NCBI GenBank assembly: GCA_010356995.1
Contig: ML996692.1
Location: 186,001-250,000, forward strand
Direction of reading: 5' to 3'
DNA: 64,000 nt
From: Trichodelitschia bisporula
Lineage: Eukaryota; Ascomycota; Dothideomycetes; Phaeotrichales; Phaeotrichaceae
The stretch's first letter is position 1; each line of letters opens with the position of its first letter. Below, piece after piece: positions 4,091 through 64,000 of the stretch. The notes under the pieces were generated by a model. It made no database searches. It was not told the DNA's origin and saw nothing but the letters and a program-made list of their open reading frames with translations. The translations under genes were made by a program, and so were the position numbers.

Positions 4091-4180
4091 GCCCGGGTAG
4101 CTCAATCGGTAGAGCGTGTGGCTCTTATGCCTCAAAGCATTGAAACCTCAAGGTCGCGAGTTCGAGCCTCGCCTCGGGCT
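4091..4180 (+). tRNA. tRNA-Lys(CUU): tRNA-Lys, anticodon CUU, with 17-nt intron
   Basis: The cloverleaf is complete: acceptor 4091-4097 pairs with 4173-4179, the T arm contains GTTCGAGCC, and the anticodon CTT lies at 4124-4126. An intron of about 17 nt (4128-4144) follows position 37, the canonical place for eukaryotic nuclear tRNAs. The anticodon stem has one T-T mismatch at pairs 29-41. A T7 run at 4183-4189 is the Pol III terminator. A near twin with anticodon UUU lies inverted at 27950-28051. Confidence 0.93.
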
Positions 4181-27949: not shown

Positions 27950-28051
27950 AGCCCGAGGCGAGGTTCGAACTCGCGACCTTGAGGTTTCAGCAGCCAGCAT
28001 TCCATCAAGCTTAATAAAAGCCACACGCTCTTCCGATTGAGCTACCCGGGC
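27950..28051 (-). tRNA. tRNA-Lys(UUU): tRNA-Lys, anticodon UUU, with 29-nt intron
   Basis: Full cloverleaf on the minus strand from 28051. Acceptor GCCCGGG pairs with CTCGGGC; the anticodon TTT is followed by A37 and a 29-nt intron before the 3' anticodon stem. The T arm has GTTCGAACC. The mature sequence differs from the CUU gene at 4091 in three bases only, including the wobble base, whereas the introns are unrelated in length and sequence. T runs follow the gene. Confidence 0.93.
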
Positions 28052-58811: not shown

Positions 58812-60083
58812 ATGGACGCCCGCGCCCACCTCACCCGCCATGGCTGGCGCGGCGACGGCCACTCCCTCGACCCTTCAAACAGAGGCCTCAAGAAACCCCT
58901 CCTCATCACGCACAAAACCGACCAGAAGGGGCTGGGGACTAAAAAGGCGGCCGAGAATCTGAGCGACCAGTGGTGGCTCCGCGCCTTCGATGATGCGCTG
59001 CAGCAGGTTGGCGCCGAGGATAGGAAGGTTACGGCATTGGATGGGGTTAGGGAACATGGGGCCAAGGTTGGGGGGTTGTATGGGTTTTTTGTGCGCGGCG
59101 GGGTGCTGGGGGGGACTATTGGGGAGGATGATGAGGTTAGGCCTGGGGATAAGGATGGCCGGGGGGAAGGGGAGAAGCGGTCCGATAATGCCGATGCCGA
59201 CGCTCCTGCGGCTGTTGATGTCCTTGCAAAGAAAATCTTGAAGCGCAAGCGCCGTGAGGCTGCCATCGCTGATGACGCGAGCAGCAAAAGGGCCGCCCGC
59301 TTGACGCTCGAGCAGTGGGTGGAGATCGGAGTCGCGTGCCAGCCGGAGTTGGACAAGATTGACGAGAGGATTAGGAGGAAGGTGCTGAACGAGCGAAGCG
59401 CGCCGGAGTTGGGGATTACGGTCGACCGGGCTAGGGACAAGCTCGAGAGGCTGGTGAAGCTACGAGACAGGGTGAGGAGGAGGGCGGACAAGGAGAAACA
59501 CAGAGCGATGAAGGAGGAACGTAGGGCGGATAGGGAGGAAGCTAGGGCGGATAGGGAGGAAGCGAGGGCGATGAGAGCAGCGGAGGAGGGGAATGAGGGT
59601 AAGACGGTTGAGGAGAGGAGAAAGGAGGAGGGAAAGAGGCGAAGGAGGGCAGAGAGGGCGGAGAGGAGGGAGGAGAGGGCGGCGGAGAGGGAGGCGAGGG
59701 AGGAACGGAGGGCGATGAAGGACGAACGTGTTGCGGCGAAGGCGGAACGTATTGCCGCGAAGGTGGAACGGGGGGAGGAGAGAGCTGAGGCGAATTCGAG
59801 ACGTTGGGAGGAGAGGTTGCTGGCGAAGGAGGAACGCGAGGCGAGGGCGGCGCAGGAGCCGAAGAAGAAAAAGAAGAAGGGAGTTGAGGCTGGTTCTGCT
59901 GATGCGGATGACGACGCGGCAGCGTCACCTGGGTTTGAACCGATGCTGCCAGCTATTGGCGGCACGATCAACTCGGCGGAGGAGGAGGAGGCGGAATTTA
60001 CGCGGAAGGGGGAGAAGGATGCGAGGAAGAAGGGGGAGAAGAAGAAGAAGAAGTCGAAGAAGGGTCGTAATGGAGAGGTTTAG
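58812..60083 (+). CDS. TMA23: G-patch nucleolar protein, Tma23-like
   Basis: Intronless, 423 aa, predicted nucleolar ribosome-biogenesis protein. The first 60 residues form the Tma23-type G-patch: MDARAHLTRHGWRGDGHSLD, then RGLKKPLLITHKTDQKGLGT and DQWWLRAFDDALQQV. Next come VGGLYGFFVRGG and a basic stretch LAKKILKRKRREAAIADDAS; residues about 205-365 are a long charged helix rich in Arg, Glu and Ala (repeated ERRADREEARADREEARA), and the tail is poly-Lys (KKKKKSKKGRNGEV), a probable nucleolar signal. The start has a CACCACCATGG context. The middle repeat lengthens it relative to yeast Tma23 (211 aa). Confidence 0.78.
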   Translation: MDARAHLTRHGWRGDGHSLDPSNRGLKKPLLITHKTDQKGLGTKKAAENLSDQWWLRAFDDALQQVGAEDRKVTALDGVREHGAKVGGLYGFFVRGGVLGGTIGEDDEVRPGDKDGRGEGEKRSDNADADAPAAVDVLAKKILKRKRREAAIADDASSKRAARLTLEQWVEIGVACQPELDKIDERIRRKVLNERSAPELGITVDRARDKLERLVKLRDRVRRRADKEKHRAMKEERRADREEARADREEARAMRAAEEGNEGKTVEERRKEEGKRRRRAERAERREERAAEREAREERRAMKDERVAAKAERIAAKVERGEERAEANSRRWEERLLAKEEREARAAQEPKKKKKKGVEAGSADADDDAAASPGFEPMLPAIGGTINSAEEEEAEFTRKGEKDARKKGEKKKKKSKKGRNGEV

Positions 60084-60733
60084 GGCAGGATTGGGGAGGT
60101 GGTATCGCGTTTCTCTTGTAGGCTCCTTCGGCGCTGCTGCGTGTAGCTAATTGTGGTGGTACGAATGGACGGGCTTGAGTATGCGATTGCGGTATCTGGC
60201 GATGTGCTTTCTTCATTTTTGGATGCTTCTTGCGAATTGGATGGCTGAGATGGCAAGCGGATTGTGAGTTGAAGCTCCTTGCCCTTCTCAATGGCGGCTG
60301 ACGAAGGCCCATTCCCCAGACAGACCACCTCACCTGCCAGCCACAGCACGACAGCTTCCCAGCCCCTTTCAACTCTCCTACCCATATCCACCGGGTGTTC
60401 ATCCCCTCCTCCCCTCCCCGGCCGGACATACCCACGTCCCCATCCCCAGCCTGAGGGTTATATAACCCCCCCTCCCTCCCACCCATCAACTCATCATCAT
60501 CAGTCAACACAATCCACTCCGACGTCCACTCCTCTCCACTCACCTCGACTCCACTTTGTGTTTCGCTCATCTTCACTTTACTTACGCACACTTTCATTCG
60601 AATTTGCTTTCCGCTCATCTCACACCACTTCCCCTTCCACTCCTCTTCCCATCATTCCCCATCATTCATTCTGTTCGCACTACGCATATCCTCGTACTGT
60701 GCGCACCGTTCCCGGCCTGCCTTCAGACCACGA
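60084..60733 (+). promoter_or_regulatory. Promoter-like region with TATA box and ATG-free CT-rich leader
   Basis: After the TMA23-like 3' end, a TATATAA box at 60459-60465 (inside the palindrome GGGTTATATAACCC) is followed by about 270 nt of CT-rich sequence with no ATG. The first ATG is at 60735, at the start of the repeat field. This is the layout of a fungal Pol II promoter and leader. Confidence 0.4.
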
Positions 60734-60960
60734 GATGCCCAGTCGGGCCTCATTCTTGCCCGTTACATTTCCGGTCCGCCCCCCCCCTGGCCTATATCCA
60801 GACCAGGCGATGCCCGGTCGGGCCTCTTTTCTACCTCTCTCATTTCCGGCCCGCCCCGCCCCTCGACCTGCCTTCACGGCGTGCGATGCCCGGTCGGGCA
60901 TCCATCCTTCGCCTCCCATCTTCGGCCCGGCCTGCCCCTCGGCATCCGTCCCCTCTCCCC
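60734..60960 (+). repeat. 75-bp tandem repeat, three units
   Basis: Units start at 60734, 60809 and 60885 with GATGCCCRGTCGGGC and share a centre near CATTTCCGGYCCGCCCC. They are clearly diverged. In one frame (60735-61103) they code a 122-residue Pro/Arg-rich orphan (MPSRASFLPV, MPGRASFLPL), which is not called as a gene because it is just repeat sequence. Confidence 0.8.
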
Positions 60961-63900
60961 TATGTCCGGTTCCAGCCTCCGTCCCCGGCGTGCACGGCAT
61001 CGATCCCATTCTCGGTCCCGCCGCTGTTTCGGCGCCAACATTCCCCCGCCCCGGCGACTTCCCAGCCAGCCTCGAGGCAGCCAGGGCGTCTTTGAATGGT
61101 TAGGATCTTTTGCCGCGCCGCCGGTCTCCCCCGATCGTCCCTCAACGAGCATTTCTACGTTTCCATTCACGCTCCGGCCCGTCCTCGCCATCCCACAGCA
61201 GCTTGGGATGTCCGGTCCGGATAGCCCACGCTCGTAATGATTCCCTCGCCCCGGCAGCGTCACAGCCCGCCCAGGGCTAGCCAGGATCCTCATCCACAAA
61301 AGGCATCTTTTGCTGCGGTGACGGTCAGGTGACAATCTCCCCCACTTAATTCCGCTGCCGCGCGGGCGGTTCCTCGGCATTTGGTGAGGCAGGGCTAATC
61401 TCTGGTCTGGGGCTCGACTCTGGACTGCTATTTCCCCGGCGAGCCGGCGGGGGCGGCTCATCGTAGGCCAGTCAGGGGTCCAAAACCGTCCGCATAATCT
61501 TTTGCTGCGGCGGCGGTCGGGCCATCCTTACCACCATTCAATTCCGCTGCCGCGGCGGCGCTTCCCACCGCGCGTTGCTCGGCATTCCGTCAGGCAGCGC
61601 TCTCTGTGGTCTGGGGCCCGACCTTCAACTGCTATTCCCCCGCCCCGGCCGCGGTCCCGGCTCATCTCGGGCCAATCAGGCCCCCCATACACATACAGTA
61701 TCTTTTGTCGCGGTTCGCGGTTCCCAGCCCGCCACTTAGCATCGATAAGATAATGAAGCACACCATGTGCGGTGCGGCGTCCGTCCCTCCGTATTTTGCC
61801 GATAGTTTGGATTCCCGGCCCGGCCGGCAACGCCGGCATACTATTCCTCCGCCACGCCCGCGGCTCTAGGTTATCTCGGACCAGTCAGGGGCGGAACCCA
61901 CCCCTGAAATCTTTTGCCGCGGCGGCGGTCTCCACCAGTCGTCCCTCGGCATTTTGCCGAGACTTTAGATACCCGGCCTGGCGGGCGACTCAAGCATACT
62001 ATTCCTCCACCGCGCCCGCGGCTCTAGGTCATCGCGAGCTAGTCAGGCGCGCAACCCATCATTCACATTTTTTGTCGCGGGAGTCGGTTCCCAGTCCGCC
62101 CCTTTACATCGACAAGATTATGAAGCATACATGCCCCGGTCCGACCGCCGTCACCGGCACACAGCGCGTGCATTCTCTTCTCGGTGACGCTGCCTTCGCG
62201 CTCATTCCCCTGCCGCCGCGCCGGTGGTCCCAGCCCACCTACGGCTCGGCCTGGCGTCACTTCGACCGCCTCGATTCCGCTGCCACGGGACGGTTCCTAC
62301 CGACCGTTCCTCGGGCCGCTTCATGAGCGTTGCATTCTCCGTCCTGCCCGTCCTCGGCATCCCACAGCAGCGTTGGATGCCCAGTCCGGCCTGCCTCCCA
62401 AGCACCCCGGCGGCCCAGGCTCCTCAGCCGGTCGGGCGTCCATTCCATCAGCATCATTCCGCCGCCGCGGCGGCCGTTTCAGTCCGTCTCGGGTTAGTCA
62501 GGGCCAGAAGCATCATCACCCATTGTCTTGCTGTGGCTGCGTTCCTAGCCGGTCTCTGGCCTATCCGGTCTCCGTCTCCCACGTCGAATTCTGCTGCCGG
62601 AGTGGCGGTTCCCACGGCCCGTTCTCGGTAAAATTCAAAACTCTGCTATGTCTGGTCGGGCAGTGTACACTTCGCCCTCATTCTCTCGCCGCGGCGGCGT
62701 TTCTGACCCGTCTCAGGGCAGTCGGGCAAGGCTCTAACAAATTCTCCTCCAGCCGCGGCGGCGTTCCAAGTCCGTCTTCGAGCTAGTTAGGGCGGGCAAT
62801 CACTAATCCAGAGTAATTCGCCGGCGGCGGCGGCGGCTTCCACGCCGACCTCGGTATCACCGACACGACATCGGCATACCCTGTCCGGCCCTCTTCGCCT
62901 GAACGTGATTCTCCGGCCCCGGCGGGGCTTGCAGCCCGTTTCTGGACCTGTTTAGTTTTTTTCAACTTTCACTCCATTCCGCCGCCGCCGCCGCGTTCTG
63001 GCCCGTCTTTAGGCTAGTCGGCGGCAATCCAATTGTCCACAATTCTGCTGCCGCAGCGGGGGTCCCCACCGCCTGTCCGTCGGCGGCCCGTTGAACATTG
63101 GCACGCCCGGTCCGGTGCTCCACCTTCTACCGCCATGTCCGGTCCGGCCTAGAAGCGGTTATAGGTATTCTCCTATCTCGTAGGCGCTTCTAGCCCGTTC
63201 CCCGGCTAGTTACGCTCCGATACGCCATCCCCCATTTTCCTGCCGCGCCGGCGGTCCCGACCCGTCTCAGGCCAGCCAGGCGTTGCTACCTGCAGCCAAA
63301 TTCCGCTGCTGCGAGGTAGTTTCCACCGGCCATCCCTCGGCGCCCCATCCGACCTCACCATGCTTGGTTCGGCACCCTATCTCCACCCATAATGTCTGGC
63401 CTGGGTCCTGTGCCGGCAGCTCAATCGCCTTGCTGCAGCAGAGTTGTCATTCCCCTCGGCCAGGTCAGGGGCGTTTGACCAAAGAAGTTGTCTTTGGCAA
63501 TGAGGGCTCCCACTACGCACCCCTCGGAGCTCTATGCTCCAGATCCATGGCCGTCCGGCACTCTACAAACCTGCTTCATGACCGGTCCGGCGCCCCGCCT
63601 TTTCTTGCTACGTCTGGTTCGGCCTTGGACGGGTTGAAAACACTCTCCTACCGCTACGGCGTTCCCACCCCATTCGTAGGCCAGTCAGGGACTATATCCG
63701 AGTCTGAACATTCTCCGTAGGCGGCGGCGCTCCCACTGCTGATCCCTTGGTACCCCGTACAACATCGGCATGCCCGGTCCGGCGTGTTCTTACGAGCTAT
63801 CAGGCCCCGTTCGGCCTTCCAACCTATTGCCAGTATTCTCCTGCCTCGGCAGAGTCCCCATCCTCCCCACGCCCAGTCAGGATCGTCGAAGTCATCAAAC

Positions 63901-64000
63901 ATTCTCTGCCGGCGGTCGCGTTTCCTACCGCCCGTTCTCGGCATATGCTACAGCCATGCCCTGTCTGGTCCGGGTCCCTCGGTAGGAGCGCCATTTCCCT
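60961..64000. repeat. GC-rich modular degenerate repeat field (to window end)
   Basis: No gene was found. The DNA is built from recurring short modules: A, ATTCY followed by a core such as GCCGCGGCGGC; B, CCCGTCTCGG; C, CCAGTCAGGGG; D, CATGCCCGGTCCGGC. A, B and C usually follow within about 50 bp, and I count over 20 A modules between 61240 and 63930. In 61105-62070 a further word, ATCTTTTGCYGCGG, recurs about every 200 bp (61105, 61305, 61497, 61700, 61909, 62066). Copies are diverged; none of the familiar transposon proteins or terminal repeats was seen. The field runs off the window. Confidence 0.8.

What the first reader, a model, noticed from the sequence alone, without database searches (positions are those of the whole stretch)
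60734..64000. Undescribed modular GC-rich repeat field
More than 3.2 kb with no gene is built from a small vocabulary: an ATTCY + GCCGCGGCGGC core, CCCGTCTCGG, CCAGTCAGGG and CATGCCCGGTCCGGC, in a mostly constant order but variable spacing. A 200-bp rhythm (61105, 61305, 61497, 61700, 61909, 62066) is close to nucleosome spacing. Copies are so diverged that only the short words persist, which suggests old duplication with selection or gene conversion on the words. The DNA is rich in CpG, unlike repeats hit by RIP. No terminal repeats or transposon proteins were seen.
Basis: partly seen in the sequence, partly recalled or inferred. Interest (0 to 1): 0.75.

Follow-up and report, generated by a model that had tools for sequence, protein, structure and literature searches.

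The report
Fungal array of fixed-gap DNA modules
A stretch of a fungal chromosome without evident genes repeats, a few dozen times on the same strand, a pair of short DNA words held 19 letters apart while the letters between them have no sequence in common, which looks like an array of binding sites of unknown use.

Summary
The field starts near 60734, runs past the window end to about window-equivalent 67155 (C6:253155), and is strand-specific. Underneath the words is a bipartite module: E (CC[A/G]GTC[A/C]GG), 19 bp, then S (ATTCTCCTGCCGCGGCGGCGTTCCC). Of 46 E-to-S pairs 11-60 bp apart, 31 are exactly 29 bp start to start; jittered controls never exceeded 9. E and S keep mean pairwise identity 0.68 and 0.59; the spacer is at background (0.275 against 0.274). 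Units are mostly 65-70 bp (A) or 92-98 bp (B). The "200-bp rhythm" is a local higher-order repeat. In the genome searches run, listed word matches cluster only at this locus of the 25.65-Mb genome, very probably Trichodelitschia bisporula (Dothideomycetes). Tests for coding, conserved RNA structure, CpG loss and guide-like spacers found no sign of them. Best reading: an old GC-rich minisatellite whose two-part module is, or was, bound as DNA by one protein or complex, so words and distance are kept but spacer letters are not. No binding, transcription or cross-species data could be obtained; function is inferred. Main rival: neutral decay with an unusually low indel rate.

The parts
60459..60465 (+). 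TATATAA, possible Pol II TATA box, followed by a CT-rich leader with no ATG until 60735
   Evidence: promoter reading is inference
60724..60924 (+). 5' edge: three 75-76 bp repeats carrying E-like words (60738, 60813, 60889) without S
61011..64000 (+). module array inside the window (20 of 37 modules start here); continues to about 67155 (C6:253155)
61105..62080 (+). higher-order repeat of about 200 bp (S1-S2-S3), incl. two copies of 158 bp at 61782-62080, 80% alike
61011..61064 (+). E-N19-S module
61076..61128 (+). E-N18-S module
61211..61264 (+). E-N19-S module
61320..61373 (+). E-N19-S module
61467..61520 (+). E-N19-S module
61512..61565 (+). E-N19-S module (its E overlaps the preceding S)
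61814..61867 (+). E-N19-S module
61880..61932 (+). E-N18-S module
62038..62091 (+). E-N19-S module
62427..62480 (+). E-N19-S module
62493..62546 (+). E-N19-S module
62651..62704 (+). E-N19-S module
63013..63066 (+). E-N19-S module
63138..63191 (+). E-N19-S module (B type, another E 32 bp upstream at 63106)
63205..63258 (+). E-N19-S module
63271..63324 (+). E-N19-S module
63613..63666 (+). E-N19-S module (another E 32 bp upstream at 63581)
63680..63734 (+). E-N20-S module
63872..63925 (+). E-N19-S module
63964..64000 (+). E-N19-S module, S runs past the window end

Best explanation
A single-locus (as far as searched), apparently noncoding, GC-rich minisatellite that grew long ago by tandem duplication of ~66-bp (A) and ~92-bp (B) units and of multi-unit blocks. 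Its units carry one two-part DNA element: E (10 bp), 19 bp, S (25 bp). Shown: the words, the nearly fixed distance, the randomised spacer, one orientation, and no coding or RNA-structure signal in the tests run. Inferred: E and S are, or were, contacted together as double-stranded DNA by one protein or complex, for example a multi-zinc-finger protein or an oligomer, across about two helical turns. Mutations in the words and indels in the spacer were then removed, while spacer substitutions were free. The array would act as a multi-site platform (silencing, boundary, replication or recombination control); which of these is not determined.
For: 31 of 46 E-S pairs 11-60 bp apart are exactly 29 bp start to start, jitter-control maximum 9 in 2000 trials; identity E 0.677, N19 0.275, S 0.592, background 0.274. 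The word models were started from S..E cores, not across the spacer. Model-free check: GTCNGG to ATT[CT] with gap 19 occurs 14 and 10 times in 60734-64000 and 64001-67200, mean per gap 0.48 and 0.35, no gap above 2 in window 1-60000. In eight hand-picked duplicate blocks, partly overlapping, E+S are less diverged (161/197 identical) than N19 (42/66), Fisher p 0.004. Spacer length varies less (31 of 42 at the mode within +/-6) than the better-conserved S-to-E middle (10 of 27), p 0.005. Best covariation is within the range of 20 column-shuffle maxima; mean folding z about -0.3 on both strands.
Against: No second locus with the array was found. Exact GGTCMGG-N19-ATTCNC occurs 10 times genome-wide, 4 in the array; the 6 outside equal the 6 of the reversed control, so there is no sign of a dispersed regulon. 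No relative's genome could be read. In the longest duplicate (61782-62080) spacers are 26/37 alike, not far from the linkers (35/44). Linker (268/364) against N19 in the blocks is not significant (p 0.10). At an indel/substitution ratio of about 0.02 neutral decay could keep the length. No transcription or binding data.
Confidence: 0.5

Rival explanations
1. Dead minisatellite: an old GC-rich tandem array decaying neutrally, with the apparent words being the slowest-changing part and few indels.
For: S scores fall off at both edges; gene and transposon fragments lie in it and beside it; spacers of the longest duplicate still resemble each other; in a simple simulation indel/substitution 0.02 keeps 31 of 42 lengths with P 0.16 at 1.2 substitutions/site.
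Against: Neutral decay from one ancestral unit should erode E, S and N19 alike, yet N19 is at background while E and S are at 0.68 and 0.59. At 1.2 or more substitutions/site per lineage, P(>=31/42) is 0.004 or less for indel/substitution 0.03 and about 1e-6 or less for 0.05-0.1.
Confidence: 0.25
2. Array of small-RNA or guide units: conserved repeats about 47-50 bp and 19-bp unique spacers transcribed from the upstream TATA box and processed, CRISPR- or piRNA-cluster-like in layout.
For: Nearly fixed 19-bp unique spacers between conserved words; TATATAA and an ATG-free leader just upstream; C-over-G strand skew even in the unconserved spacers, 246 C to 154 G.
Against: 37 spacers match 159 kb of the same genome no more than reversed spacers, and about as often as shuffled ones (13-mers: 2, 4, mean 1.4). 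Two spacers searched genome-wide with up to 2 mismatches found only themselves and one 2-mismatch place. No covariation beyond shuffles. Repeats are strongly diverged. 35 of 37 spacers were not searched genome-wide.
Confidence: 0.07
3. Recombinase or transposase sites: E-N19-S is a recombination-signal-like two-part site and the array is a store of such sites left by a mobile element.
For: Two words at fixed distance with a less conserved spacer is the layout of RSS (PMC212687, abstract) and of many transposon ends (recalled); captured gene fragments lie in or beside the array.
Against: Modules found on one strand only; no long inverted repeats in 60500-64000 (ends of the whole field were not compared); no Pfam transposase in six frames of the field; no second locus seen.
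Confidence: 0.08
4. Centromere or other chromosome-level element of this one contig.
For: Centromeres of the dothideomycete Zymoseptoria tritici can hold unique DNA and expressed genes (PMC4589918, abstract); a word-distance-word layout recalls yeast CDEI-CDEII-CDEIII (recalled).
Against: Strong sequence constraint is not expected of regional centromeres (the outline of PMC4589918 has a heading that Z. tritici centromeres are not defined by a consensus motif), and word clusters were not seen on other contigs.
Confidence: 0.05
5. Protein-coding repeat gene or structured long RNA.
For: Possible promoter at 60459; a 122-aa ORF from the first ATG at 60735; 11% of 64 windows fold with z below -2 on the - strand, control 6%.
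Against: Unit lengths are not multiples of three (43 S-S steps: 16, 9 and 18 with remainder 0, 1 and 2) and stops fall evenly in the + frames (34, 35, 39 of 2155); no Pfam match at E<=1 in six frames of 60450-64000, and one weak sub-cutoff KN_motif match (E 0.028) in the L002 part; no relative for residues 150-274 of the 5' ORF among proteins of comparable length; covariation within shuffle range.
Confidence: 0.05

Closest known systems
GC-rich strand-asymmetric minisatellites (VNTRs; features recalled)
   Same: Head-to-tail units of tens of bp, GC-rich, C/G strand skew, higher-order blocks
   Different: Units so diverged that Tandem Repeats Finder reports only two unit-length pieces, periods 75 and 158, in 60000-64000; two words kept at a nearly fixed distance with a randomised spacer; single locus as far as searched
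V(D)J recombination signal sequences / Transib ends
   Same: Short word, fixed-length less conserved spacer, second word (abstracts)
   Different: 19 not 12/23 bp, different words, dozens on one strand, no transposase seen
CRISPR arrays (features recalled)
   Same: Conserved repeat, near-constant unique spacer, one orientation
   Different: Eukaryote, repeats strongly diverged, no spacer source found where looked for
Yeast point centromere CDEI-CDEII-CDEIII (recalled)
   Same: Word, length-held free-sequence middle, 25-bp word
   Different: 19 bp instead of about 80 bp AT-rich; repeated; found on one contig only

Membership tests
Minisatellite | Tandem head-to-tail units of 10-100 bp | tested here: met
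   36 of 43 S-S steps of 55-100 bp are 65-70 or 92-98 bp
Minisatellite | Units alike along their whole length | tested here: not met
   N19 at background identity, E and S at 0.68 and 0.59
CRISPR array | Near-identical repeats with unique near-constant spacers | tested here: not met
   spacers unique and near-constant in length, but repeats only 0.59-0.68 alike
CRISPR array | Spacers match foreign or mobile DNA | tested here: inconclusive
   none above control in 159 kb; only 2 of 37 searched genome-wide
Structured ncRNA repeat | Compensatory changes in stems | tested here: not met
   no pairs from RNAalifold on 24 cores; best covariation 0.69 on 31 modules, shuffle maxima 0.56-0.89 in 20 shuffles
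Known RNA family (Rfam) | Match at gathering score | tested here: not met
   3 matches in window and L002-L004, all tRNA, none within the array
Transposon with RIP | CpG loss, multicopy | tested here: not met
   CpG o/e 0.89-1.22 at 61001-67500; DNA search finds no second copy
RSS-like recombination site | Cleavage or rearrangement at the sites | not testable with these tools
   no strain data
Centromere | CENP-A enrichment | not testable with these tools
   no ChIP data
Protein-coding tandem repeat | Frame kept across units | tested here: not met
   S-S steps spread over all remainders by 3

The most novel reading that the evidence does not exclude
The locus is the cis part of an undescribed fungal system: a few dozen copies of a two-part site, E-19-S, recognised in register by a dedicated DNA-binding complex (silencer/boundary, recombination or segregation platform). 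Spacing is under selection and spacer sequence is free, comparable in logic to RSS or point-centromere elements.
Probability: 0.2. Interest if true: 0.85.

Novelty: new variant of a known kind. Interest (0 to 1): 0.58.

Why it matters
Diverged repeat fields are usually dismissed as junk. Here the divergence itself exposes what was kept: two words and the 19-bp distance between them. That gives a concrete, testable probe (E-N19-S against spacing mutants) for an unknown DNA-binding activity in a little-studied fungal order, and a general way of reading function out of old minisatellites.

Tried and rejected
RNA structure: consensus folding, covariation against column shuffles and folding z-scores gave no clear signal. 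Coding: six-frame Pfam scans, a protein search of the 5' ORF, stop counts and unit lengths gave nothing for the array, bar one sub-cutoff KN_motif match. Guide-array idea: spacer matches are like the controls. Dispersed copies: listed word matches cluster only here (the list is cut); no profile hit in 48 other loci of the same genome, 207 kb of letters with some overlap (the 9 loci on or next to the array were left out). A two-part match near the C5 end lies in what looks by eye like a transporter gene, and the one-mismatch word near the C2 end has no array around it. The LRR-like locus on C14 holds no array; one sub-threshold profile hit of 4.3 bits. Nucleosome rhythm rejected. Autocorrelation as sole evidence rejected, since other windows give similar z. 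Literature: listings of eight searches (searches list only the top of more papers) and the abstracts and outlines of PMC4589918 and PMC212687. No title or abstract start listed describes such an array. That is weak evidence of absence: the six papers listed for this species are not about its genome by title, and most subscription papers are not held.

Full report
Where it is. The window is G000:C6:186001-250000 of a 25,654,952-base genome in 30 contigs. The ORF at 58812-60083 is 97% identical over its whole length to EJ06DRAFT_528830 of Trichodelitschia bisporula (named a G-patch protein; other hits are named TMA23), on a contig of 1,403,583 bases (C6 here: 1,401,020), so the organism is very probably that species. 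The field lies to the right of this ORF. The next 50 kb of the contig were fetched. After the array come a tRNA (L002:3495-3566, minus), a gag_pre-integrase relic and multicopy repeats, a run of N, and then what look by eye like a HET-domain gene, RAD50 and a white-collar-2-like gene in L003 (read by eye, not searched).

Is it more than chance? Yes. The middle word CCCGTCTCGG alone is not in clear excess: 15 against a shuffle mean of 6.6 and maximum of 15 in the first part, 5 against 5.3 in the second. A profile made from 13 copies finds 15 places at >=15 bits, seeds included, on the + strand of 60001-72300, none on its - strand, none on either strand of window 1-60000, none in 50 shuffles. 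Iterated, the profile reports 60 places between 61040 and 67155, many of them partial or weak. Simple autocorrelation is not decisive: best-lag z per 3 kb is 2.9-3.3 in the field and 2.5-3.3 elsewhere.

The module. Columns anchored on the profile showed information in the 25 bp from ATTC on and in GGTC.GG some 20-26 bp before it, with little between. Two weight matrices, E (10 bp) and S (25 bp), were started from the cores and scanned separately. They gave 74 E and 62 S places in 60734-67200. E is short and has 78 and 93 hits on the two strands of window 1-60000, so about 8 to 10 of the 74 are expected by chance; S has 5 and 4. Of 46 E-S pairs with starts 11-60 bp apart, 31 are at exactly 29, 3 at 28, 3 at 30. 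Jittering E by up to 15 bp gave a mean maximum of 4.2 and never more than 9 in 2000 trials. Without any trained model, GTCNGG followed by ATT[CT] shows gap 19 fourteen times in 60734-64000 and ten times in 64001-67200; the next commonest gap is 24 (4 times) in the first part, and 83 and 24 (3 each) in the second. Mean pairwise identity over the 31 exact modules: E 0.677, the 19 bp 0.275, S 0.592, 12 bp upstream of E 0.31; background 0.274. Spacer identity does not rise with E+S identity (correlation -0.05).

Units and higher order. From S to the next E is 36-42 bp in A units (27 cases, modal 37 with 10) and mostly 63-74 bp in B units, which carry CTCGGCAT and CATGCC before CGGTCCGG (by eye); some places have two E 32 bp apart. 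Of 43 S-S steps of 55-100 bp, 26 are 65-70 and 10 are 92-98. Autocorrelation peaks at 158, 66, 92 and 191 in 60701-64000 and at 67, 68 and 338 in 64001-67200, where 200 appears too. At the 5' edge are three 75-76-bp repeats with E-like words only. Modules per kb fall from 8 in each of 63.5-64.5 and 64.5-65.5 kb to 3, then 2 at 66.5-67.5 kb and 0 beyond, up to 71.5 kb.

Why DNA-level constraint is favoured. If units simply decayed from a common ancestor, the spacer should be as alike as the words; it is not. Gene conversion that keeps both words would carry the 19 bp with it (inference). In eight hand-chosen duplicate blocks, some overlapping and so not independent, E+S is 161/197 identical and N19 42/66 (p 0.004), linker 268/364 (linker against N19 p 0.10). 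In the longest pair (158 bp apart) spacers are 26/37 alike, against 35/44 for linker and 52/60 for E+S: spacers are inherited in duplication and then drift. Length is better kept in the spacer (31 of 42 at the mode within +/-6) than in the partly conserved S-to-E middle (10 of 27; p 0.005). A simple simulation says that neutral retention of length is plausible at indel/substitution of about 0.02, and at 0.03 only if divergence is lower than the spacer identity suggests. This is why the dead-array rival keeps 0.25. Against an RNA role: no consensus pairs on 24 cores, best covariation 0.69 with 4 of 20 column shuffles as high or higher to two decimals, mean folding z -0.31/-0.33 (control stretch 0.06/-0.04; windows below -2 on the - strand 11% against 6%). 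Against coding.

Genome-wide. The B word with up to 2 mismatches occurs 116 times on both strands against 70 for the reversed control. The listed places, a cut list, show a cluster only in C6:246.8-249.8 kb (8 places). The A tail with up to 3 mismatches: 5 places, 4 in the array, control 1. The S word with up to 2 mismatches: 24 places, 11 in the array, control 7. The exact two-part pattern: 10 places, 4 in the array, control 6. DNA searches of the array find only itself, apart from an LRR-like fragment matching C14. The profile finds nothing in 48 other loci, 207 kb of letters.

Captured fragments. L002:1654-1749 and 2458-2554 match an LRR-like ORF on C14 in the reverse of its order (the LRR name is by eye, and Pfam reported no LRR). 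L002:5328-5411 matches the start of a HIS7-like frame whose other copy is C5:1286070-1286150 at 93% (the HIS7 name is recalled). These suggest that the interval tolerates insertions, at least towards its 3' side.

How it most likely works. Shown: words, register, free spacer, orientation, single locus as far as searched, no coding signal. Inferred: joint recognition of E and S by a protein or complex in DNA form. Unknown: which protein and to what end. The upstream TATATAA (60459) and ATG-free leader to 60735, and the C-over-G skew even inside spacers (246 to 154), hint at transcription through the array, but this is not tested. Works-like comparisons (RSS, point centromere) are analogies of layout only; membership is not claimed.

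Noticed in passing
L002:1654-1749 and 2458-2554 (window-equivalent 65654-65749, 66458-66554): Two LRR-like gene fragments (name by eye) inside the array, matching an ORF region at C14:683892-684058 but in the opposite order
   Followed up: partly
L002:5328-5411: HIS7-like (name recalled) first-exon fragment, 93% identical in protein to C5:1286070-1286150, near 33-bp repeats (ATTCGGGTGCCCGGC...) that read in frame as 11-residue repeats beginning IR.PG
   Followed up: partly
L002:6056-8350: Patch of repeats with 66 matches in the genome search, several at contig ends (C14:1-875, C21:41-434, C2:2301, C6:1914)
   Followed up: no
window 60440-60735: TATATAA and CT-rich, ATG-free leader resembling a promoter pointing into the array
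   Followed up: partly
window 27950-28051 (-) and 4091-4180 (+): tRNA genes by Rfam (51 and 52 bits); the first is missed by ARAGORN, the second has an odd 4-base anticodon call
   Followed up: no
array, e.g. E at 62782 to S at 62816 and E at 65012 to S at 65046 (window-equivalent): A gap of 24 bp, about half a helical turn more than 19, is among the next commonest E-S gaps (4 and 3 times in the two parts)
   Followed up: no
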